Shown: positions 22,720 to 39,422 of the stretch, piece by piece
How the letters are laid out: each line of letters opens with the position of its first letter
Numbering within the stretch: position 1 is the first letter of the stretch
NCBI GenBank assembly: GCA_007694145.1
Contig: RECF01000056.1
Location: 1-42,997 of the forward strand
DNA from: Acholeplasmatales bacterium
GTDB lineage: Bacteria > Bacillota_I > Bacilli_A > Izemoplasmatales > Izemoplasmataceae
DNA length: 42,997 nt
Direction of reading: 5' to 3'
The notes under the pieces: generated by a model
The model's input: only the letters and a program-made list of their open reading frames with translations
Told to the model about the DNA's origin: nothing
The model's database searches: none
Position numbers and translations under genes: made by a program

Positions 22720-25155
22720 TTACAAATCGTATTTGGTGTTGATTTCTGCCGGGGTATGTCTCAGCAACATGCCCACGGGCAATACACCGGACAACATGTT
22801 GATCGCATAAATGAGCAGAATACCACTTAAGACACTGAAAATCGATACATGGCCAATCTCGAGTGCTTCGGCAGCACGGAGTGCCGAGGCGATGATATAG
22901 CTCATGAGTAAGAAGCCAATCAAGCTGCTGAAAGTGGTGATGATGGCACTTTCAATGGCGAATCGTTTGACCAAATCACGCTTCTTCGTCCCAAGTGAAC
23001 GGTACACACCAATCTCATACATCCTTGAAATCATCGAAGAGCGAATAATGAAATAAAAGCTTAACGCCGATGCAAGGACAGCAAACGCTGAAAAAATCAG
23101 TGAGCCACGGGAATTTTCGAGCCGGTTCATTTGATACGCGCCGCGGGCAGTAGGATAAATGTACTCCCCGTCAATCCCTGCATCTGATAGATGCCTAAGC
23201 GTCGCGTCGGGATCGGCGCTAAAAAGGAGGCGTTCACGGTCGGGCCCTGAGGTTTGAGCATAGGCAATCCGGTTCAAATCTACGGTTGAGACCATGACGC
23301 GGTTGCTCACAAGCGGGGTCTCTTCTTCAAGAAGATGAAACTTGCCAACAATCTTAAGTTTAATGCCGGCAACCGTAATAGTTCCGTCGATGCTAAGCGG
23401 ATGATTCGCACCGACGATGACCTCAAGCGGATTCTCGATATCACGACCCCCTTCGAGGATGACAACATCCGAACCAAACATTTCCCGGGTCCAGTACGTA
23501 TCGCTTGTAAAGTATGCAATCAGCGCCGGGTCCATGTGGATGACGGGGGCATCATCACGACTGATACCGACAATGCGCACCTGTCGCGATACATGCTCGT
23601 TGATGGGGATGGGAATGCTCATCTGCATAACGGCTTCAGGATGTCGATAATCAAGACCAGCAAGCTCCCAGTTTCGCTTGACTTCACGGTCAATCCACGA
23701 CAAAGATACAACGACCTCAAGGGGGGACTCCGGTAGCCGTCCATGCGCAAGCGCACGTTCGGTTAAGCCGGCAATGGGCGCAAAGTTCGCCTGCAGTTGC
23801 ACGTGGTCGACATACTGATAACTCATGAAGACCCGTGGTAAATCGAATCGTACATCGGTGCCGAAGCTAAGACTGGTCGCCTTGATACTCTCATGAGATG
23901 TCACGGCAAGAAAGTCGTCATAGCTGTCAAAATCACGGTTGCGCACAATAATGGTTTCCTTCGGCTGTTCAAGAAATACGGCATCATCGATGGTCAAAAT
24001 GTTGAACAAGTTCGAGATGGCATAGGCGACAACCATGGCCCCAATCGCAAAACCGACATACAGTAACTTTTGACCCTTGCCGGCCTCAAGTAACTTCTCA
24101 AGGGTTTGCATCAGGATGGCCTTGGGGTTGATAACCGTCCGTTGCTTAGTTGTTTCAAGCGGCTTGAACAAGGTCGCATCGAGCGACTTAAGTGACGGTT
24201 CTTCTGTGGCTTCTTGCAACGTATCACGCGTTGAATCGATGAGGTTGACTTCTGACTTTTCGTCGATCACGACCACTTTTTTGACATCGACAGCACGCAA
24301 GTCGAGATACAACGTTTTGTTTTTCATGATGAGACGGGCGTTGAGTGGGGGACTCTGTGCTTCATCGGTGTATAGGTCAACCTGTATATTATCGGTGTCA
24401 CCCCGGGCGATATGATGGTGCAAATCATGCAAGTAGATGTCGGTTTCCTGCGCAAAGTCAAGTGTGCCGTTTGAATCGTTTGTCCGATCTTCGATGATTC
24501 TACCATCTTCAATTTCAATGATTCGATCGGCGAAGTAATTGGCCAGTTTCCGTTCGTGTGTCACCATGATGACCAGTTTGTCTCGTGAAATGGCCTTGAT
24601 GATGCGCATGATATCGAGTGTGTTGCGGCTATCGAGATTGCCGGTTGGCTCATCAGCTAAGATAATCGCGGGGTTTTTTGCGAGCGCACGGGCGATGGCA
24701 ACCCGTTGTTGTTGTCCGCCTGAGAGTTGGTTGGCTTTGCGTCGTCGGTAATTGTACATGTTGACGGCACGAAGCACCCCTTCAACGCGTCCTTCAATGG
24801 CCTTAGGATCAGACATGCCAAGCATGTTCAAAGTCAAAGCGATGTTTTCATGGACGGTCAGATTGGGCAACAAGTAATAGTTTTGAAATATCATGCCGAT
24901 CTTTTCATTGCGCAGCCGATCGTGAACACTCGATTTGTACTTGTGTACCACCGTTTCCTCATATTGAATGGCACCTTGATGAAAGCGGTCCATACCGCCG
25001 ATGACATTGAGCAAGGTCGTTTTTCCTGAACCCGAATCACCAAGAAGCACGACAAGACCCTGTGCACCAAAGTCAACGGACATGTCATTGAGTACGTGGA
25101 GTGCATTCTTTTTGTTTTTATTGTAGTACTTATGAAGATGCTCGACTTTAATCAT
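22720..25155 (-). CDS. ABC transporter ATPase-FtsX permease fusion (MacB-like), second of a pair
   Basis: An 811-residue fusion. ATPase domain at residues 1-~225: Walker [14 protein letters not shown]-loop FQNYYLLP, signature [16 protein letters not shown], Walker [16 protein letters not shown]-loop MVTHE. After a linker there is one membrane helix (~355-380), a large extracytoplasmic domain (~390-660) and three C-terminal helices with the FtsX phrase [25 protein letters not shown]. This is the MacB/type VII layout, which transmits force to substrates outside the membrane rather than moving them through it. GGTGG precedes ATG 25155; GTG 25164 would abut the preceding gene's stop. Its partner is the next ABC gene, from which it is separated by 9 bases; probably a heterodimer. 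Confidence 0.9.
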
Positions 25156-25164
25156 AGCCACCAC

Positions 25165-27363
25165 CTACTCCGTTCTCAGCGCCGTGATGACGCTGTCCTT
25201 GAATATTTTCCGGTTGAAGCGCAAGCCAAGCAAGAATGCCAACCCCATCAGGAGCCCAGCCGCAAACAGATAGTTGCCCAAAGTATAATAGCGCAAGTAG
25301 TTTGGAATGGGGGTCTCCACGACCGCGTTTACGGCCCATAAAACATACATGATAACAAAAGCTGTCAGGAAAACACCGATGAGTTCTAAAATGGTGATTT
25401 GATTTAAGTCTTTTTGCGTAGCACCGATTGAACGATAGATGACATAGTCACGTTTTCGAGCCCGCATGATATTGCGTAGGGCAAGATAGGTGAGGAAATA
25501 CATGACCGTCAGCTGGAAAAAGACAGCGATGAAACTTGCAAGACGTTCAAAAATGGTGAAGAGATACATTTCCATGGGTTGATACTCGGCTGGATAGATC
25601 GTGTGATACGTTGATTGATCAAGAGCGGCCATGACACGGCTCGCATCAAAACTATCTTCAACGACGAGGGTCACTTGTGAGGAATCAAGATGAAACAGCG
25701 TCGCGAAGAGATCCGGATGCATCACGACGGCCGGCATACCAAACTGCCCTTGAGAGAAGATGGTGTCGATATGGACCGTTGTTAAATGTTCCTCGGAAAT
25801 AAGTGGATGCAAGATGGAAAGCGCATACGACTGTTCAAGAAACGCGGCTTCGGTTAGACTCGGGGTGTTGAAGTACTCCGGACTGATGAGCAGCGAAAAA
25901 GTTCGTTGGCCGATATGCACCGTGTTCTCTTCAAGCGTTTCATCGAGCCGAATGCTGATATAAGGAATTTCCGCTGTCTTGTCAGCGGTCGCAAACAAGA
26001 GCGAGACGTGTTGTTCGATGGCTTTATATTGCAACAGAGGGTGCTCGAGCGCTTCACGGTGCAAGTAAATGTAATTATGATAGCGGGCAGCGTGAATCCC
26101 GACGACCGTAAAGGTCTGCACCATGCCACTTGGTTGGTTCGCTTCTTGCGGGTCGCGATAGTACCGATCCGAATCAAATGTGAGCCGGACAGTCTCGCCG
26201 ATTGGAATGGCCGCTTCACGGGGCATGACAATTTCTGCGGCGGATTCGGGTACACGCCCCTCACGCAAATCACCCCGCGTCAAACTAGCCGATGGCAGGA
26301 CATAATAGGCACTCCACGTGTCTTCAAGACCTAACCGCAGTTCGAGCACTGGGTCAAAGGCAATGACTTCACGTACTCTGGCATAAGATTGAAATTCAGC
26401 AAGCTCCTCAGGCGTAAACGGTGCCTGATCGCGTCTGAGCACAATCAGTCGGCTCGGGTCGTTGTTGTTGAAAAAGGGATTCCATGAGCCAATATCAAAG
26501 GCGCTAGACGCTTCGATATAGGAACCATAAGTGAACGAAAAGACCGCGACAATGAAAAGACTGATCGCCAAAGTAAGCAACAGTCTTTTCGGCATGGCCA
26601 ATAGATTTCTCGTAGCCATGGCAAGTTTTTCTAACCAGTGCATCCCTTGATGAAGCGGTTTAGGCTGGGTCGGGGCGCTGTCTGTCTGAACAAGCGTCTT
26701 GTCTTCGACCACTTCACCGTCAAAAAGGCGAATCCGCCGAGTGGCTTCGTCTTGAACTTCCTCATAATTGTGCGTCACCATGACAACCAGTTTCTCACGA
26801 CTGATTTCTTTCAAGAGCTTGATGATGTTTTGACCGGCTTTTTTGTCTAAGTTACCCGTCGGTTCATCTGCGACAATAATCGGGGCGTCTTTAGCAAGGG
26901 CTCGCGCAATGGCGACACGTTGCTTTTGTCCACCTGAAAGCGTACTCGATTTCTGCTTGAGCTGTTCTTTTAAACCCACACGCTCAATCAACTCGATGGC
27001 GCGCATCTTGCGGGACGATTTCGGATACCCTTGAATTGTCAAGGCCGCCATGACATTTTGATAGACCGTGTAGGAGTCGATGATGTTGTAGTTTTGGAAA
27101 ATGAAACCGATATATTGACTGCGGTAGTTTTCCCAGTCTTCCTTGCCATAGTAGCTGGTTTCTTCACCATTGACAGAGAGTTCACCCTCTTCGTAGGTAT
27201 CTAGACCACTGATGACGTTGAGTAAAGTGCTTTTACCCGACCCTGATTCGCCGGTAATTACGACAAACTCACCACTGTTCAGTGTCAGGCTGACACGCCT
27301 GAGTGCCTGAACGACGGTCTCCTCACTGCGATAATACTTCGATACGTGCTGAAGCTTGAGCAT
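25165..27363 (-). CDS. ABC transporter ATPase-FtsX permease fusion (MacB-like), first of a pair
   Basis: A 732-residue protein with an N-terminal ATPase (Walker [21 protein letters not shown], signature [16 protein letters not shown], Walker [24 protein letters not shown]), one helix around residues 260-285 ([20 protein letters not shown]), an extracytoplasmic domain, and three C-terminal helices with [23 protein letters not shown]. It has the same plan as its neighbour but distinct sequence, fitting two halves of one heterodimeric exporter or mechanotransmission system for peptides, antibiotics or lipids. Start at ATG 27363 after AAGGTGG; the nine upstream codons lack a ribosome site. It follows the YgjV-GNAT gene by about 48 bases, in the same direction. 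Confidence 0.9.
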
Positions 27364-27411
27364 CGTGGCCACCTTCTTCTTGTGAATCATGTATTCGGCA
27401 TGATCCGCGCT

Positions 27412-30448: not shown

Positions 30449-31438
30449 TCACGTCCTTTCAAGCACGTTATAAACAGGGGTCTTCAGTGCCGTCACCGCA
30501 GCCGTGTAAAAGTGCGCAGCCTCATAGTGATGGCCCGTCGGACTCCAAGGATTGAGGGTGATGGCCAGCAATGGGCAACGGCGTGTGACATAAGCGGATA
30601 CGCCCAAATGATCAAAGACGGCGAACTCTTGCAAAGACAGCGTATATTTGGTTGCATCCTCAGCCACAATGTTAAACCCGCCGAGACGGTGATCCCGCAA
30701 AAAAGACGTCAACCGTGAGGTGATAGCACCGCGCACATATAGCGTACCCCCGCGTATTAAGCGGTCCTTGATGGTTGTCAGGACTCGATAGTCTTTTTTC
30801 AACCAAACAAGGTCGCCCTCTGCATCGTGATAGGCAAGACGCATCTCAGCAGGCCAGCGTGGTAGGTCCGAAAACGTCGGCAACGCAAACAAACGTTCGA
30901 CATGGGCCGGCTTCTTGATGGTTTCCGCCATGTCAGGTGAAACCGCGGCACCGGTCGCAAGCACCATGCCCGACATGGATTTGATGCCGGCAAATGTCCG
31001 CCGCTCAAGCGCCCCGTCAATGAGCACGTGGGGGTGATACGCTTGTAGGTGTTCGATCACGCTCTGCAAATCACGGTTGGTCGTTGGACCGGCCACACAC
31101 ACCGTACCCGCTCGCCTGACACGGACGATACATACCGGCCCAAGCGCCGTTTGAAACGGTGTTTCTTCAAGCACTGTCACGGTGGCTGTCGCTGCGGACA
31201 AGGTGCTGCGTGCGGTGGCGATGACCATCCCAGCAACCGTGTCGATGGCCGGTTTGGGCAAGCCCGTCAATTGGTCGATACTTTCTCCGTCAAGGCCGAT
31301 ACTCGTCAAAGCGACCTGTCCAGAAAAAAGCTGGATGACATGATTCAGCGTGGTCGTCTTGCCTGTATTTTTGGCCATGCCGGCAAAACCGATGACCGGG
31401 TAGGCCTCAAGACTCGTTTTCACGACGTAACCGTTCAT
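30449..31438 (-). CDS. kamB: KamB-like lysine 5,6-aminomutase reactivase subunit
   Basis: A 329-residue protein with an early P-loop, GFAGMAKNTGKTTTLNH (residues ~18-34). Further phrases are DGALERRTFAGIKSMSGMVLATGAAVSPDM and a C-terminal segment FVAEDATKYTLS-like (NIVAEDATKYTLSLQEFAVFD split by my reading). Size, P-loop and position between kamA and kamD match the protein named KamB in lysine fermenters, thought to help reactivate the aminomutase by exchanging damaged cobalamin. Its usual partner KamC, a MutS-like ATPase, is missing from this operon. The start at ATG 31438 has no recognisable ribosome site, but it lies 32 bases inside the end of kamA, so translation is probably coupled. Confidence 0.82.
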   Translation of the reverse strand: MNGYVVKTSLEAYPVIGFAGMAKNTGKTTTLNHVIQLFSGQVALTSIGLDGESIDQLTGLPKPAIDTVAGMVIATARSTLSAATATVTVLEETPFQTALGPVCIVRVRRAGTVCVAGPTTNRDLQSVIEHLQAYHPHVLIDGALERRTFAGIKSMSGMVLATGAAVSPDMAETIKKPAHVERLFALPTFSDLPRWPAEMRLAYHDAEGDLVWLKKDYRVLTTIKDRLIRGGTLYVRGAITSRLTSFLRDHRLGGFNIVAEDATKYTLSLQEFAVFDHLGVSAYVTRRCPLLAITLNPWSPTGHHYEAAHFYTAAVTALKTPVYNVLERT

Positions 31439-32681
31439 TACGGTTCAAATGGGCAGGCTCAAGGGCGACCCGCGCACCTTGCAACAGACCGCTGACACCT
31501 TCTGTAATCGTATCCTGACAGTCCGCACATTGACAATCCGATGCATAATGTTTCGGTTCGCTGTATGTGCTGATCACACCTTCGTAGTTGCGAAGCACCA
31601 CTTTGCCAGGCGCTTGTGAAATCACATATTGTGGCATGACAGGAATCTTGCCACCTCCACCTGGTGCATCCACGACAAAAGTTGGCACAGCGAAGCCACT
31701 GACATGGCCACGAAGACCTTCGATGATCTCGATGCCTTTGGAAATCGTGGTGCGGAAGTGTTCGATTCCGGTTGAAAGGTCGCATTGGTATAGATAATAG
31801 GGTCGCACACGATGGGCGACGAGATTTCTGATGAGGCGTCGCATGATGTGCACACAGTCATTGACACCGCGCAAGAGAACCGACTGATTGCCAAGCGGTA
31901 TCCCGGCATCGGCGAGCAAGGCAAGCGCTTTGGCGGATTCAGGCGTCATTTCATCTGGATGGTTGAAATGCGTGTTGACCCAAATCGGATGATACCGTTT
32001 CAACATGTCGACGAGTTCGGGTGTGATGCGTTGCGGCATCACCACAGGTGTGCGGGACCCAAGACGTATCACTTCGACATGTTCAATGGCCCGTAAGCGC
32101 CGGATGATCCATTCAAGACGTTGATCGCTCACCAGTAACGCATCGCCGCCGCTGAGCAAAACATCCTTGATGGCTGGGGTAGCGGCGATATACTCAAGCG
32201 CCGCTTCAAGACGGTCTTCGGACATGTTGGCATCTTTCATGCCGGCGAAACGACGCCGGGTACAATGACGACAGTACATGCTGCACATGTCCGTAATCAA
32301 GAAGAGTACCCGGTCGGGGTAGCGATGGGTCAAGCCCGGTACGGGTGAGTCATGATCTTCGGCCAGCGGGTCATGCAAATCATGTTGTCCGACGGTCAGT
32401 TCGTTGCCAAGGGGAACGGCTTGAAGTCGAATGGGACACTGCACATCATCGGGATTGATCAACGTGAGGTAATACGGTGTGATCGCCATGCGAAAACGAC
32501 CGAGCACCTCGCCAATCAAAGCTTCCTCCCGTTCACTTAAAGTCAAGTATGACTTGAGCGCATCAACCGATGTGATGCGATGGCGCGTCTGCCAATGCCA
32601 ATCATTCCACTCGGCATCGCTCACATCAGGAAAATAACGCTGGCGCCGCGCAAGATGGGTCGTATTCTGATGTCGTTTCAT
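31407..32681 (-). CDS. kamA: L-lysine 2,3-aminomutase
   Basis: Radical-SAM, PLP-dependent first step of lysine fermentation: L-lysine to L-beta-lysine. The 424-residue protein has the cluster motif C133-x3-C137-x2-C140 (DMCSMYCRHCTRRR), the SAM/substrate region LLSGGDALLVSDQRLEWII, the PLP lysine in DAPGGGGKIPVMPQYV, and a C-terminal cysteine pair CQCADC that binds zinc in the clostridial enzyme. That tail and full length separate it from EpmB. ATG 32681 is eight bases after GAGGAGG; the longer open frame overlaps kdd out of phase. It lies 13 bases after kdd. Confidence 0.96.
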   Translation of the reverse strand: MKRHQNTTHLARRQRYFPDVSDAEWNDWHWQTRHRITSVDALKSYLTLSEREEALIGEVLGRFRMAITPYYLTLINPDDVQCPIRLQAVPLGNELTVGQHDLHDPLAEDHDSPVPGLTHRYPDRVLFLITDMCSMYCRHCTRRRFAGMKDANMSEDRLEAALEYIAATPAIKDVLLSGGDALLVSDQRLEWIIRRLRAIEHVEVIRLGSRTPVVMPQRITPELVDMLKRYHPIWVNTHFNHPDEMTPESAKALALLADAGIPLGNQSVLLRGVNDCVHIMRRLIRNLVAHRVRPYYLYQCDLSTGIEHFRTTISKGIEIIEGLRGHVSGFAVPTFVVDAPGGGGKIPVMPQYVISQAPGKVVLRNYEGVISTYSEPKHYASDCQCADCQDTITEGVSGLLQGARVALEPAHLNRNERLRRENES

Positions 32682-32694
32682 GGACCGAACCTCC

Positions 32695-33735
32695 TCATGA
32701 TTTCGTGTAACGCGCCTTGAAAATGTCGAGCAACTTCGGGGTGGTGCGCACCAAGTCAAGGGTGAAGTCGGCATGCCCTTTAGCATAGCCGTTGCCGATG
32801 ATCATGGTGATGTCTTTCCCGATACCCTCAGCACCCAGTGCTGCTTTTTGAAAGCTTGTGGCCATGCTGAAGAAATAGACAGTACCGCCGTCTTTTGTAA
32901 CCATCATTGAAGTCATTTCCGTGTCGCCGACGTTGACTACGTTAACACTCAAGTCAACCATGGCACCTGCCGTCGCCTCCCTAACAGCTTCATAGACAGT
33001 GAGCGCGTCTTGTGCATCGGCGAGGATGATGGTGTCACACCAGCAAAGCGACTCAAGTAACGTCTTTTGTGCTGGTTCATTCACCAGTCCAATCACTTTT
33101 CCGGTTGCACCGACCGACCGCCGTGCCTGCGCTAAACAAAGCAAGCCACTCTTTCCAGCGGCACCTAGTACAAAGACCGTATCGCCCTCTTTGGCGAGCC
33201 GGGCCATCTGTGGGGGTGCACCGGCCACATCAAGTGCTGAAAGAACCAAGGTCTCATCGAGGTCTTCAGGGAGGACCGCATAGATGCCCGAATCAAACAA
33301 GACAGCGGTGCCCTTGATGTGTACTTGATCTTGCGCAGCGACTATCGCGGTGATCTCTTCGATCACAAGCGGCGTCAACGTCAAAGAGACTAAGGTTGCA
33401 ATCGGTGTGCCTGGTTGAAGGGTTGGGTCGTGAAAATCCGGACCGACTTCACGTACGCTCCCCATGAGCATCCCGCCACTTCCAGTCACCGGGTTTTGCA
33501 TCTTTCCGCGCGTGTTGACGATATCTTTAATCATGGTAGCCATGGCGATTTCATCATGATTACACACAGTCTTGATTTGCTGAAATGACGCGGAGTCGAT
33601 ATTGAGGACCTTGACATCGATCAGACACTCGTTGTCGCCGCAAACTGGTGTATTGTCAAGGCTGTCGGCCGCTTGAGGTAGCGCACCTTTAGGCGCTTTT
33701 ACCCGGTGGCTGCCGTACTTACAGGATGTTTTCAT
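32695..33735 (-). CDS. kdd: L-erythro-3,5-diaminohexanoate dehydrogenase
   Basis: Oxidatively deaminates 3,5-diaminohexanoate to 5-amino-3-oxohexanoate with NAD(P)+. The 346-residue protein has the family N-terminus [19 protein letters not shown], the conserved NPVTGSGGMLMG, and a Rossmann fold with VFVLGAAGKSGLLCLAQARR. The late glycine-rich YFFSMATSFQKAALGAEGIGKD also fits Kdd. Start at ATG 33735, nine bases after GGAGG, overlapping kce by 17 bases. This step supplies NADH or NADPH to the NfnAB/RnfC-like proteins of the other region (inference). Confidence 0.94.
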   Translation of the reverse strand: MKTSCKYGSHRVKAPKGALPQAADSLDNTPVCGDNECLIDVKVLNIDSASFQQIKTVCNHDEIAMATMIKDIVNTRGKMQNPVTGSGGMLMGSVREVGPDFHDPTLQPGTPIATLVSLTLTPLVIEEITAIVAAQDQVHIKGTAVLFDSGIYAVLPEDLDETLVLSALDVAGAPPQMARLAKEGDTVFVLGAAGKSGLLCLAQARRSVGATGKVIGLVNEPAQKTLLESLCWCDTIILADAQDALTVYEAVREATAGAMVDLSVNVVNVGDTEMTSMMVTKDGGTVYFFSMATSFQKAALGAEGIGKDITMIIGNGYAKGHADFTLDLVRTTPKLLDIFKARYTKS

Positions 33736-35597: not shown

Positions 35598-36249
35598 CAG
35601 ATACCTCCGTCAAGATATAGTCCACCAGAACATGGGGCGTTATGACGGTTTCAGGATCCATCGCTTGACTGCGGCATGTCGCTTCGACAAATACCAAATT
35701 GGCCGCAGTCGCCATGACCGGGTTGAAGTTCCGGGCCGTCTTGGCATAATTCAAGTTGCCGTATTGATCGGCCTCGCGGGCTTTGATAAGTGCGATATCC
35801 GCACCAATCGGCCGTTCAAGGATATAGGGTTTGCCGTCGACCTCAAGCCGGGACTTGCCCGCTTCCGCTGGTGTATGCAAGCCTGTCGGCGTCAAAATCC
35901 CCCCTAACCCTGCCCCTTTTGCACGGATTTGTTCTGCTAAGGTCCCTTGCGGCACAAGCGTGACCGCGAGTGTTTCTGCACCCATCATCGATCCCGCGAT
36001 GGGGTTAAGTCCGATGTGAGAGGCAATCAGCGTGCTGACACGGCCGGCCGCAATCAGCTTGCCTACACCCGCTTCAGGATAGCCGGCATCATTACAAATG
36101 ACGGTGAGGTTTTTGACACCACTTTCAAGCATCCAGTCGATTAACCTCTCCGGTGTTCCACACGTCATGAAACCACCGACCATCACCGACATGCCATCAA
36201 ACAGGTGCGCATGAAAGGTTTGCTTGTCGAGCTTTTTGTGGGCCTTCAT
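35587..36249 (-). CDS. atoD: Acetoacetate/butyrate CoA-transferase alpha subunit
   Basis: A 220-residue alpha subunit of the same CoA-transferase: [49 protein letters not shown], and [23 protein letters not shown]. Start at ATG 36249 overlaps the MaoC-type gene by 4 bases (ATGA). Full length and intact. Its place near the operon head means it is made early and in balance with AtoA. Confidence 0.95.
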
Positions 36250-36662
36250 GGTGCCAACCGCCGGGGTGGCATCAAGATGGCTTCACCTGTGAGAACGCAC
36301 GCACCGTCTGCATCGTAGACTTCAGTCAAAAACGTTACACGGTTGCGTTCTCGGTTAAGTTCGGTGACGCGGACGACCACTTCAAGTGCGGTGTCGGGGT
36401 AGACGGGTTTGCGAAACTTCAAGGTTTGACTACAATAAATCGTACCTTCTCCAGGATACTCCAGTCCGAAAATGCGACTGAACAACGCACCGACAAGCAT
36501 GCCGTGAACAATCGGCTTGCCAAATGGCGTTTGTGCGGCATAGGCAGGGTCGAAATGGGCTGGATTCATATCCTCAGTAACGCGTCCAAACATGAGAACA
36601 TCCTCGGTTGTGATGGTGCGTGTGTACCGACGCTCATCACCGTGTTGCATCGTCTCAATCAT
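36246..36662 (-). CDS. MaoC-type (R)-specific enoyl-CoA hydratase-like protein
   Basis: A 138-residue hotdog-fold protein with the MaoC/PhaJ motif region: TEDMNPAHFDPAYAAQTPFGKPIVHGML carries the Asp and His of the hydratase-2 active site. It should interconvert crotonyl-CoA and (R)-3-hydroxybutyryl-CoA, so it could turn the pathway's crotonyl-CoA toward hydroxybutyryl/acetoacetyl-CoA instead of butyrate. It is the first gene of the lysine operon, directly after the riboswitch. The start is ATG 36662, preceded by GAGGAGG; upstream codons in the same frame belong to the riboswitch leader and are not translated. Such a gene is not a standard member of the kam cluster. Confidence 0.82.
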   Translation of the reverse strand: MIETMQHGDERRYTRTITTEDVLMFGRVTEDMNPAHFDPAYAAQTPFGKPIVHGMLVGALFSRIFGLEYPGEGTIYCSQTLKFRKPVYPDTALEVVVRVTELNRERNRVTFLTEVYDADGACVLTGEAILMPPRRLAP

Positions 36663-36682
36663 ACGGGCCTCCTCTTTGTAGG

Positions 36683-36716
36683 AAAAATAAAAAGAGCTGA
36701 CATTGGTCACAGCTCT
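36683..36716 (-). terminator. Riboswitch-controlled intrinsic terminator in the lysine operon leader
   Basis: On the minus strand AGAGCTG (36716-36710) pairs with CAGCTCT (36699-36693), extended by AC/GT inside, followed by TTTT-A-TTTTT. The 5' arm contains the 3' strand of aptamer helix P1 (36712-36708), so the two structures exclude each other. Confidence 0.85.
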
Positions 36717-36876
36717 CCATGAAACATGGCAATGCGATGGGTGTCTCCCAAAGCACCAAGTCCGACATCCGTGGGCGGTGTCGAGCTTTCGGCGATGGCT
36801 TCCTTCCCGCACAACCAGATGCCCCACATCCGAGTTTGTCATGCGGTACCAAGGCATCGCGCCTCTGTACGTTTCC
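36683..36876 (-). promoter_or_regulatory. Lysine riboswitch (L-box) leader of the lysine fermentation operon
   Basis: Minus strand. The aptamer has AGAGGCGCG (36866-36858), then CGCCGAA (36793-36787), the L-box signatures. P2 is a long bulged arm, closed by GGC/GATG pairing with CATCGCC (36797-36791); its tip is GATG-TGGGG-CATC. P3 is CGACA/TGTCG (36783-36779 with 36767-36763). Loop L2 GTGGG (36827-36823) is complementary to loop L3 CCCAC (36775-36771), the kissing contact typical of lysine riboswitches. P5 is CCATG/CATGG, followed by the core GGAGAG (36718-36713) and P1 (TACAG 36869-36865 with CTGTG 36712-36708). A terminator follows. Drawn by hand; the P4 region is less well matched. Class call rests on motifs, kissing loop and the lysine genes downstream. 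Confidence 0.85.
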
Positions 36877-36882
36877 ACACCC

Positions 36883-36912
36883 ATTATACTTGTTTGATGT
36901 AAGCGTTGTCAA
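36883..36912 (-). promoter_or_regulatory. Promoter of the lysine operon
   Basis: Minus strand TTGACA (36907-36912) and TATAAT (36883-36888), 18-base spacer; transcription should begin near 36876, a few bases before aptamer P1. Confidence 0.85.
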
Positions 36913-37070: not shown

Positions 37071-39422
37071 ATGGTTTTGTTGTGGATCGATCAAGCGAAG
37101 AAACTCATCAAGAAACCTTTCTATGTTGTGTCTTTATCGCTCATTCTTTTTTTGGTCATCTTCAGTTTCACGTTGATACGAACACTTGTCGACCGACTTG
37201 AGGCGCCGGTTTCGGATTATTATGCGACGCAAAATGTCGAAGACTTCAGCATTGTCCTCGGACAAATCGATTTCTCGTTGCTTACCGCTGAACAACGCGC
37301 GCGTGTCTGTGCCATCTATCCCATCGCCTTGTGTGCGAGTCTGAATGAACGCGATCCGCGTGATGTCGCGCGATTGACTGAAACAATCCAACGTTCGATT
37401 CATCAGTATCCCGAAGTCTATGATGTTGTGTTCGGCCCTTTAATCGCGCAACTGAGTACCGATTATGATCTCGCGTTTGAGAAATCTGTCGGGGCCAATG
37501 TTGAAGCAGACGGTAGCATCTATCGCTTCATTTCCATCAACACAGAGATTAACCGCCCGTTGATCACAGATGGCCGGTTGCCAGAGGGCCCTAATGAGGC
37601 GGCCATTTATGCGGCCTATGCCAAGGCGAACCATCTCGAAATCGGTGACGAGCTCAACGTGCGTAACCAAACATTGACCATTACCGGGTTCTTTTTTTCT
37701 CCCGAACACACCAGTCCGATGATTCGTGCGAACGAACTTAACTTCGATCCGAAAACCCAGACACTCGTCCTTGTCGAGGAAGCGGTCATCTACGCTTTCC
37801 GTGTTCCATTTACCGTTAAGTATGTCGGTCGAGGTGACTTCACGACGCTCTATGACAGGTTTGACGTGGCTGACATTCTCACGGCTGATTTACGTGCTTT
37901 TGGCAAAAACATGCAAATGGTTCAAGCTGTCGTACCGGCCGCCTTCAACTTACGCATCACCGCCATCACGACCGAGACCCAAACCGCCGCCGCATTCGCC
38001 TCGGTCTTTCTCGGGGTCTTCTCGGTTTTTTCCGTGACGGTTCTCATGGTCTTTGTCAAGCGACATCTCGACCAACAGACCCGCGACATGTCGATCCTGA
38101 ACGCACAAGGCTATACAGTTCATGAACGGGCGCTTGCACTGACCCTCATCGGCTTCTTGCTTGCCTTGATAGCCGTGTCGGCCTTCGGGTTAGGGTTGTG
38201 GTTTGCAAATCGTTTGTTTCTCTCGTATGCCGTCCGCTATCAACTACCACAGTCTCATTTTTTCATCCCAGTCGACGTGCGCCGCTACGCCGGCATTTTA
38301 CCGTTGGTGCTACTACCGATGATGACTTACATGTATGCACGTATGCTCTTTCGAAGCAGCCATAAGCAGCTGTCGCGTTTCAAGATTCACGTGCAGCTGC
38401 TCACGCGCCATGCCATGCAAGGCGTACTCTTTTTACTTGTTTCAGTGTTGCTTGTCTTCGGATTGAGCAGCCGTGCCATTATCGATGATTTCAAAGCGAC
38501 GACAATGCAAGGCAACCACTATGAAAATGTCGTCTTCCTCAGTCGTTTCACGACCCAAAAGCGCAGTGGCGCCGAGCCATTCTCTTCAGGGATTGTCACC
38601 GTCACTGCCCACCGTGGCACCAACTTGAGCACGTCCCTTCGCATTCAAGGTTATGGGCTTGATGAATCCATCACACTAAAGCGGTTAATCGATGATACGG
38701 CTGAAAGCAATGCCCTTTTAAAAGAGGGGGCCATCATCACCCGCCAAGCGGCTGCATTGCATGGTTTTTCTGTTGGCGATACGTTGACGTTACGGGTTGG
38801 ACCGCGCACCCATCAAACGGTCATTGTCGGTCTTAATGACAATTTGATTGAAGCGGCCGTTTTCCTGGACCAGGCGACATTCAACCGACTGTACGGATTG
38901 TCCAATCAATACTTCAATGCCTATTACACCTTGCAGGAAAATGTCCGCGACAGCGATGCCTTCCGTATTTTGAATTATCGCGCGATCGCTGAAGAAATTG
39001 ATGTATTATTCAACTTGTCCGCCACCATCGCCACCGTGATGATGACCCTAGCAATCGGTTTGTCCTTGTTGTTGTTTGTCTTCATGATGCAACAGGCGCT
39101 TGATGCACAAAAACAAGTCTTTTTGACGTTGCGAGCCCTTGGCTACACCGCGGCGGAAACATATCGCATCTTCTTCTTGAAAAGCCTTCTCACCCTTGGT
39201 GTCGCTTTTGCGGCTGCCATTTGGTTCAGTGCACAACTGCAACGCGTGGTGCTTAGCCTCTTGCAAGACACACTTGGATTTGTGTTCATCATTGAAGCAC
39301 GTCCGCTCTCGACTGTTTTGGCTGGTGTGATTGTCTTTGCACTCGTCTTGCTCACTACGTTGTTCATTCACCGGCGTGTTCTCCGCATCCCTTTAGCGGA
39401 CGTGTTGAAACTGGCCCATTAA
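37071..39422 (+). CDS. FtsX-like ABC permease without its own ATPase domain
   Basis: A 783-residue membrane protein. N-terminal helix (~19-40), a long extracytoplasmic domain, then three helices around residues 310-420 including the FtsX region DMSILNAQGYTVHERALALTLIGFLLA. A second set follows: another helix (~445-467), a second extracytoplasmic stretch, and three C-terminal helices with QVFLTLRALGYTAAETYRIFFLKSLLTLG. This double-FtsX (1+3, 1+3) plan is that of large permeases which pair with a separate MacB/LolD-type ATPase, but no single-domain ATPase gene lies next to it. The ATPases here are both fused to permeases. GGAGGTGA precedes the ATG. Monocistronic with its own terminator. Substrate unknown. 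Confidence 0.85.
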   Translation: MVLLWIDQAKKLIKKPFYVVSLSLILFLVIFSFTLIRTLVDRLEAPVSDYYATQNVEDFSIVLGQIDFSLLTAEQRARVCAIYPIALCASLNERDPRDVARLTETIQRSIHQYPEVYDVVFGPLIAQLSTDYDLAFEKSVGANVEADGSIYRFISINTEINRPLITDGRLPEGPNEAAIYAAYAKANHLEIGDELNVRNQTLTITGFFFSPEHTSPMIRANELNFDPKTQTLVLVEEAVIYAFRVPFTVKYVGRGDFTTLYDRFDVADILTADLRAFGKNMQMVQAVVPAAFNLRITAITTETQTAAAFASVFLGVFSVFSVTVLMVFVKRHLDQQTRDMSILNAQGYTVHERALALTLIGFLLALIAVSAFGLGLWFANRLFLSYAVRYQLPQSHFFIPVDVRRYAGILPLVLLPMMTYMYARMLFRSSHKQLSRFKIHVQLLTRHAMQGVLFLLVSVLLVFGLSSRAIIDDFKATTMQGNHYENVVFLSRFTTQKRSGAEPFSSGIVTVTAHRGTNLSTSLRIQGYGLDESITLKRLIDDTAESNALLKEGAIITRQAAALHGFSVGDTLTLRVGPRTHQTVIVGLNDNLIEAAVFLDQATFNRLYGLSNQYFNAYYTLQENVRDSDAFRILNYRAIAEEIDVLFNLSATIATVMMTLAIGLSLLLFVFMMQQALDAQKQVFLTLRALGYTAAETYRIFFLKSLLTLGVAFAAAIWFSAQLQRVVLSLLQDTLGFVFIIEARPLSTVLAGVIVFALVLLTTLFIHRRVLRIPLADVLKLAH

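What the first reader, a model, noticed from the sequence alone, without database searches (positions are those of the whole stretch)
36683..36912. Lysine riboswitch wired as an ON switch for a lysine-degradation operon
The leader of the kam/ato operon carries L-box signatures (AGAGGCGCG, CGCCGAA), a long P2, a P3 whose loop CCCAC matches the P2 loop GTGGG (kissing contact), and a GGAGAG core just before P1'. The P1 3' strand CTGTG (36712-36708) is inside the terminator 5' arm AGAGCTG (36716-36710). If lysine stabilises P1, the terminator cannot form. That is the opposite wiring to lysC-type L-boxes, where P1 competes with an antiterminator. It makes biological sense: lysine present, lysine catabolism on. 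Aptamer and terminator are seen in sequence; class assignment uses known L-box features; polarity is inferred from the overlap.
Basis: partly seen in the sequence, partly recalled or inferred. Interest (0 to 1): 0.92.

Follow-up and report, generated by a model that had tools for sequence, protein, structure and literature searches.

The report
Lysine-activated riboswitch for lysine fermentation
The RNA leader of a complete lysine-fermentation operon is a lysine riboswitch whose sensor helix shares bases with the transcription terminator, so lysine should switch the operon on; the same layout is found at every such operon that could be checked in this bacterial order, and it was already predicted for a few other bacteria.

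Summary
Window 36875-36702 (-) is a full-length RF00168 lysine riboswitch (65.3 bits, E 5.7e-15), just after a consensus promoter and upstream of a complete lysine-fermentation operon. The P1 3' strand (CUGUG, 36712-36708) shares CUG with the terminator 5' arm (GAGCUG, 36715-36710), so P1 and terminator exclude each other: an ON switch.

Comparison supports this. In the window's order (Izemoplasmatales) the P1 3' strand lies in the terminator arm in 31/31 L-boxes before this operon and 0/42 L-boxes before lysine synthesis or transport genes. Six more operon L-boxes are ON-wired. The same genome's second L-box is wired the opposite way. Twelve Clostridia kal leaders are ON-wired too.

The idea is not new: ON lysine riboswitches that bury terminator pieces, and L-boxes on kal/kce operons, are in the literature (PMC2258182, PMC5584792). 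What seems new: aptamers alone, without P1 or terminator, split ON from OFF on one branch (100/100), with a marker (AGUA to GGUA in P2), and a cre-like box overlaps the operon's -35 element. Lysine binding and polarity in vitro remain untested.

The parts
36907..36912 (-). -35 box TTGACA
   Evidence: sequence; spacer 18 nt to the -10 box
36898..36911 (-). cre-like box TGACAACGCTTACA overlapping the -35 box (13/14 match to TGWAARCGYTWNCW)
   Evidence: 12-13/14 at the same place in all 31 catabolic leaders of the order then in hand; the protein that would bind it is not identified
36883..36888 (-). -10 box TATAAT
   Evidence: sequence; start site about 36875 is inferred
36702..36875 (-). lysine riboswitch aptamer (RF00168)
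   Evidence: 65.3 bits, E 5.7e-15
36865..36869 (-). P1 5' strand UACAG
   Evidence: Rfam alignment
36847..36850 (-). P2 internal-loop GGUA (AGUA in OFF-type L-boxes), marker of the ON lineage
36823..36827 (-). P2 loop GUGGG, kissing partner
36788..36794 (-). J2/3 core CGCCGAA
   Evidence: alignment
36771..36775 (-). P3 loop CCCAC, kissing partner
36708..36712 (-). P1 3' strand CUGUG, preceded by the J5/1 core
36692..36717 (-). intrinsic terminator hairpin GAGAGCUG..CAGCUCUU; 5' arm shares CUG with P1-3' and GAG with the core
36683..36693 (-). U-tract UUUUUAUUUUU (its first two U pair in the hairpin)
   Evidence: sequence
36668..36674 (-). ribosome binding site GAGGAGG, outside the hairpin
   Evidence: sequence
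36246..36662 (-). MaoC-like hydratase, first gene
   Evidence: PF01575
35587..36249 (-). CoA-transferase subunit A (atoD-like)
   Evidence: TIGR02429
34950..35597 (-). CoA-transferase subunit B (atoA-like)
   Evidence: TIGR02428
34554..34946 (-). kal, 3-aminobutyryl-CoA ammonia lyase
   Evidence: NF052388
33719..34561 (-). kce, 3-keto-5-aminohexanoate cleavage enzyme
   Evidence: NF052387 above cut-off; start codon inferred
32695..33735 (-). kdd, 3,5-diaminohexanoate dehydrogenase
   Evidence: NF052381; start codon inferred
31407..32786 (-). kamA, lysine 2,3-aminomutase (ORF as listed)
   Evidence: TIGR03820
30449..31438 (-). kamB, aminomutase reactivase
   Evidence: NF052386
28876..30462 (-). 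kamD, lysine 5,6-aminomutase alpha
   Evidence: NF052384
28119..28886 (-). kamE, lysine 5,6-aminomutase beta
   Evidence: NF052385

Best explanation
A transcriptional lysine-ON riboswitch controls the whole lysine-fermentation operon. Shown from sequence: a complete L-box aptamer, a terminator whose 5' arm uses the same bases as the P1 3' strand and J5/1 core, and a full lysine-fermentation operon downstream. Inferred: RNA polymerase transcribes the aptamer; if lysine is bound, P1 is held and the terminator cannot form, giving read-through; without lysine, the emerging CAGCUC arm strips CUG from P1, the hairpin forms, and transcription stops before the first gene. No antiterminator element is needed: P1 itself plays that part. 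A cre-like box over the -35 element suggests that catabolite repression is layered on top.
For: RF00168 hit. Operon content. P1-3'/terminator overlap in 31/31 catabolic versus 0/42 other L-boxes, Fisher p 2.6e-21, not corrected for relatedness; six more operons agree. All 37 assessable kce operons in 61 genomes carry it; the other two kce genes lie at contig starts. Same genome, opposite wiring: terminator probability with P1 enforced versus P1-5' blocked is 0.00 versus 0.92 (window) and 0.82 versus 0.00 (transporter L-box). Folding by transcript length: the P1 state is within 0.2-0.8 kcal/mol of the best fold until the terminator 3' arm starts to emerge, then 11 kcal/mol worse, the profile of a poised co-transcriptional switch. 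Conserved kissing loops. ON wiring with different P1 sequences in 12 Clostridia kal leaders. Shuffle control 4/720.
Against: No ligand-binding or transcription data. P1 is short (5 bp; 3-6 in relatives) and the finished terminator is about 11 kcal/mol more stable than the P1 state without ligand, so the switch must act kinetically. In the window, transcripts that begin at GAAAC have an alternative pairing (GAAACGU with AUGUUUC) that displaces P1 and P5 in the unliganded fold; it vanishes if the first 5 nt are omitted, and the start site is not mapped. The folding test is partly circular, since overlapping helices exclude each other by construction.
Confidence: 0.87

Rival explanations
1. An ON switch of the same build whose natural ligand is not lysine itself but a pathway compound such as beta-lysine or 3,5-diaminohexanoate.
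For: The ON aptamers form their own lineage and differ from OFF aptamers at a nearly invariant P2 position and in P2 length.
Against: Junction motifs AGAGG.GC, GCCGAA and GGAG are kept, and the marker lies in P2, not in the five-way junction where, from general knowledge, lysine binds. Lysine is the first substrate of the pathway.
Confidence: 0.07
2. A standard lysine-OFF switch, or no switch: the overlap is incidental and the hairpin is a constitutive attenuator.
For: Most characterised L-boxes are OFF; the polarity here is only inferred.
Against: The overlap is present in 31/31 catabolic and 0/42 other L-boxes, in 4/720 shuffles, and recurs with other P1 sequences in Clostridia. The short stretch between P1 and the U-tract is taken up by the terminator itself, leaving no room for a separate antiterminator.
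Confidence: 0.04
3. The element acts mainly on translation or mRNA stability rather than on termination.
For: The E. coli lysC riboswitch acts on translation and RNase E cleavage (described in PMC5584792).
Against: Here the ribosome binding site (36674-36668) lies outside the hairpin, and a U-tract follows the stem directly.
Confidence: 0.02

Closest known systems
Lysine riboswitches upstream of kal/kce in Clostridium sticklandii, Fusobacterium nucleatum and Thermoanaerobacter (PMC5584792; ON logic for certain lysine riboswitches stated in PMC2258182, citing Rodionov 2003)
   Same: L-box aptamer, lysine-degradation target, predicted activation; ON members described as burying pieces of the terminator stem.
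   Different: Here the leader governs a ten-gene kam/ato/kal/kce/kdd operon in Izemoplasmatales, and the wiring is checked in 37 operons against in-genome OFF controls. The named cases could not be fetched here, so their wiring was not compared.
lysC-type L-boxes (B. subtilis, E. coli)
   Same: Same aptamer class; E. coli lysC scores 99.5 bits with the same model.
   Different: OFF logic. The P2 motif is AGUA in E. coli lysC and GGUA in the window.
ON-type glycine and adenine riboswitches
   Same: Ligand-stabilised pairing takes bases from the terminator (PMC2258182).
   Different: Unrelated aptamers and ligands.
OFF-wired L-box of the same genome (G000:C10:23115-23278, before an amino-acid ABC transporter)
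   Same: RF00168, 60.9 bits.
   Different: Terminator starts 22 nt after P1; P1 favours termination; AGUA in P2.

Membership tests
Lysine riboswitch (RF00168) | covariance-model score above the gathering threshold over the full model | tested here: met
   65.3 versus 30 bits, positions 1-182
Lysine riboswitch (RF00168) | conserved junction motifs (AGAGG.GC, GCCGAA, GGAG) | tested here: met
   alignment; consensus
Lysine riboswitch (RF00168) | L2-L3 kissing contact | tested here: met
   5 bp in the window; complementarity kept with changing sequence in relatives
Lysine riboswitch (RF00168) | P2 AGUA (sarcin-ricin) motif; typical rather than strictly defining | tested here: not met
   GGUA in the window and nearly all ON members; a subtype difference, the model still matches in full
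Lysine riboswitch (RF00168) | binds L-lysine | not testable with these tools
   needs in-line probing or ITC
Lysine-OFF (lysC-type) riboswitch | P1 formation permits the terminator by freeing it from an antiterminator | tested here: not met
   P1 excludes the terminator
Transcriptional ON riboswitch | ligand-stabilised helix shares bases with an intrinsic terminator | tested here: met
   CUG shared in the window, whole P1-3' strand in most relatives
Transcriptional ON riboswitch | read-through rises with ligand | not testable with these tools
   needs in vitro transcription
Lysine fermentation (kam/kdd/kce/kal) operon | KamA, KamD/E, Kdd, Kce, Kal and CoA-transferase encoded together | tested here: met
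   all key enzymes above curated cut-offs
CcpA cre site | match to the cre consensus and a CcpA protein in the genome | tested here: inconclusive
   13/14 match; best LacI-family protein scores 288.9 bits, below the ccpA cut-off 442.35

The most novel reading that the evidence does not exclude
ON-type lysine riboswitches are a distinct aptamer lineage, marked by GGUA in place of AGUA in P2, that is tied to the lysine-fermentation operon and shared by Izemoplasmatales and Clostridia, rather than OFF L-boxes rewired case by case. Some Lachnospiraceae members carry two or three successive copies of the P1 3' strand, most in their own terminator-like hairpin, which could hand the single P1 5' strand from one terminator to the next.
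Probability: 0.6. Interest if true: 0.62.

Novelty: new member of a known kind. Interest (0 to 1): 0.5.

Why it matters
To my knowledge no natural lysine-ON riboswitch has been shown at the bench; ON logic was a prediction from a few genomes. This gives a clean test case: one genome, two L-boxes, opposite wiring that matches opposite biology (burn lysine versus import it). The single ON aptamer lineage would show that riboswitch polarity can be inherited with the sensor domain, not only with the expression platform, and gives a natural lysine-inducible part.

Tried and rejected
Alternative class: the full Rfam scan gives no other family in the window. Chance overlap: rejected by the OFF L-boxes and shuffles. 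Loss of the L-box at some kce operons (G008, G013, G018, G022, G028, G012): rejected, the first genome search had missed them under its stricter filters; closer scans found all six. An automatic terminator pick gave wrong hairpins for four OFF leaders (L103, L105, L108, L109); the stricter finder corrected three, and L105 stayed doubtful (1 nt overlap). A tree artefact from the P2 marker alone: rejected, the P3-P5 half also separates ON from OFF (1 change, 67/97), and the P2 half needs 2 changes. Independent rewiring in each taxon: all Izemoplasmatales aptamers as one clade is rejected, p-AU 0.007. L239, an ON-wired Clostridia leader on a very long branch, falls on the OFF side of the quick tree and was left out of the careful ones. 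L208 and L220 (Clostridia) are not simple overlaps and are not counted among the 12 ON-wired Clostridia leaders, though L220 was labelled ON (by its target) in the trees. The original 2003 paper (PMC290268) and the cited review (PMC3744886) are not held, so prior art is cited through two open papers.

Full report
WHAT IS THERE. The whole window scanned against Rfam gives one match at gathering threshold: RF00168, lysine riboswitch, 36875-36702 on the minus strand, 65.3 bits, E 5.7e-15, full model length. It starts a few bases after the -10 box of a consensus promoter, TTGACA (36912-36907), 18 nt spacer, TATAAT (36888-36883). Downstream lie, in overlapping or nearly abutting order, genes for a MaoC-like hydratase, both subunits of an atoDA-like CoA-transferase, Kal, Kce, Kdd, KamA, KamB, KamD and KamE, i.e. 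a complete lysine-fermentation pathway under one leader. The organism appears to be a member of Izemoplasmatales: the nearest Kce relatives in named records are Candidatus Izimaplasma/Izemoplasma and related genomes.

THE SWITCH. P1 is UACAG/CUGUG. The terminator hairpin GAGAGCUG..CAGCUCUU (-10.1 kcal/mol) with a U-tract begins within J5/1 and takes CUG from the P1 3' strand. When the first 5 nt are omitted, the best fold of the nascent leader is the canonical five-helix L-box including P1; with them, a GAAACGU/AUGUUUC pairing competes. As the transcript grows, the P1 state stays within 0.2-0.8 kcal/mol of the best fold until the terminator 3' arm starts to emerge, after which it falls 11 kcal/mol behind. 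That is what a co-transcriptional switch should look like; the polarity that follows is ON.

COMPARISON WITHIN THE ORDER. Among 61 genomes, 51 carry RF00168 matches, 73 in all, and 39 carry kce. I fetched the 73 leaders and classed each by tblastn with the window's operon proteins; a first terminator finder was replaced by a stricter one. The P1 3' strand overlaps the terminator 5' arm in 31/31 operon leaders and in 0/42 others (Fisher p 2.6e-21, uncorrected for relatedness). The others precede lysA, an amino-acid ABC transporter or an M20 amidohydrolase (read from the translations, not scanned). Six kce operons that the first search had passed over also carry ON-wired L-boxes, so all 37 assessable operons have one; the remaining two kce genes lie at contig starts. 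In a folding test, enforcing P1 lowered terminator probability by more than 0.3 in 34/35 operon leaders and raised it by more than 0.1 in 24/40 others. The overlap arises in 4/720 shuffled leaders.

THE IN-GENOME CONTROL. The same genome's other L-box (G000:C10:23115-23278) precedes an amino-acid ABC transporter. Its terminator begins 22 nt after P1, and P1 has the opposite effect: terminator probability 0.82 with P1 enforced, 0.00 with its 5' strand blocked.

BEYOND THE ORDER. Kce relatives were fetched from named genomes, and 50 of those genomes were searched for L-boxes. Four Clostridia leaders before kal-kce are directly ON-wired (L207, L213, L214, L216), and eight more from the order of one of them. 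Their P1 sequences differ (CAAUAG/CUAUUG, GAAUAG/CUAUUU, AGAUAG/CUAUCU). Most kal genes looked at in that order have no L-box within reach, so the association is not universal there.

ONE ON LINEAGE. With P1, J5/1 and everything downstream left out, a tree of 106 aptamers puts all 49 ON on one side of one branch and all 57 OFF on the other, support 100/100. The ON set includes L219, labelled ON by its wiring, and L220, labelled ON by its target. One ON-wired long-branch leader, L239, was left out of that tree; in the quick tree it fell on the OFF side. Each half of the aptamer gives nearly the same split (1-2 changes), while taxon needs 5-8, and all Izemoplasmatales as one clade is rejected (p-AU 0.007). 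The tree is unrooted. The clearest marker is AGUA in the P2 internal loop of OFF aptamers (58/60) versus GGUA in ON aptamers (47/50). E. coli lysC, an OFF switch, has AGUA.

PROMOTER. All 31 operon leaders of the order then in hand have TTGACA inside a cre-like box, such as TGACAACGCTTACA or TGACAAACGCTTACA.

PRIOR ART. Barrick and Breaker 2007 state that certain lysine riboswitches with ON logic bury pieces of terminator stems (PMC2258182). Mukherjee et al. 2017 report L-boxes before kal/kce in C. sticklandii, F. nucleatum and Thermoanaerobacter, and call these genes positively regulated (PMC5584792). The window is therefore a new member of a known, mostly predicted kind. I found no paper in the held library that mentions both Izemoplasma and riboswitches.

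LIMITS. No binding or transcription data. Fold energies ignore tertiary contacts and ligand. Overlapping helices exclude each other by construction, so the folding test adds little beyond the overlap itself except for OFF leaders.

Noticed in passing
L213 (leader nt 165, 218, 275), L214 (174, 261), L216 (164, 242), counted from aptamer start: Lachnospiraceae/Clostridiales ON leaders carry two or three successive copies of the P1 3' strand (CTATTG) with J5/1-like bases; in L213 and L216 each copy sits in its own terminator-like hairpin, so one P1 5' strand could be handed from copy to copy.
   Followed up: partly
L227 6001-6176 (-), same as L219: An ON-wired L-box with no gene of its own close downstream on its strand; it faces a cluster of what look like sporulation genes on the other strand.
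   Followed up: partly
window 36898-36911 and the equivalent site in relatives: cre-like box fused to the -35 element of every Izemoplasmatales lysine-fermentation promoter examined.
   Followed up: partly
L068, L070, L075, L078, L094, L102-L106: Shorter L-boxes (137-151 nt) before M20 amidohydrolase and lysA genes, several with a conserved GTGGGGC after P1 and a GAGCC-type terminator, in genomes that mostly lack kce.
   Followed up: no
L053, L086, L093: In three genomes a short-chain dehydrogenase gene (checked by Pfam in L053), and apparently further sequence before atoD, is inserted between the L-box and the rest of the lysine-fermentation operon.
   Followed up: no
L220 (leader of a Peptostreptococcaceae kal-kce operon): The P1-3' hairpin is followed by a separate terminator; AATGCTAAAA after P1 is complementary to TTTTAGCATT at that terminator's 5' arm, which could give ON logic by an extra folding element.
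   Followed up: no
window 22720-27390 (-) and 37071-39422 (+): Two large proteins with ABC-transporter ATPase domains (MacB/LolD/FtsE-like) and a 783-aa FtsX-domain protein flank the operon.
   Followed up: no
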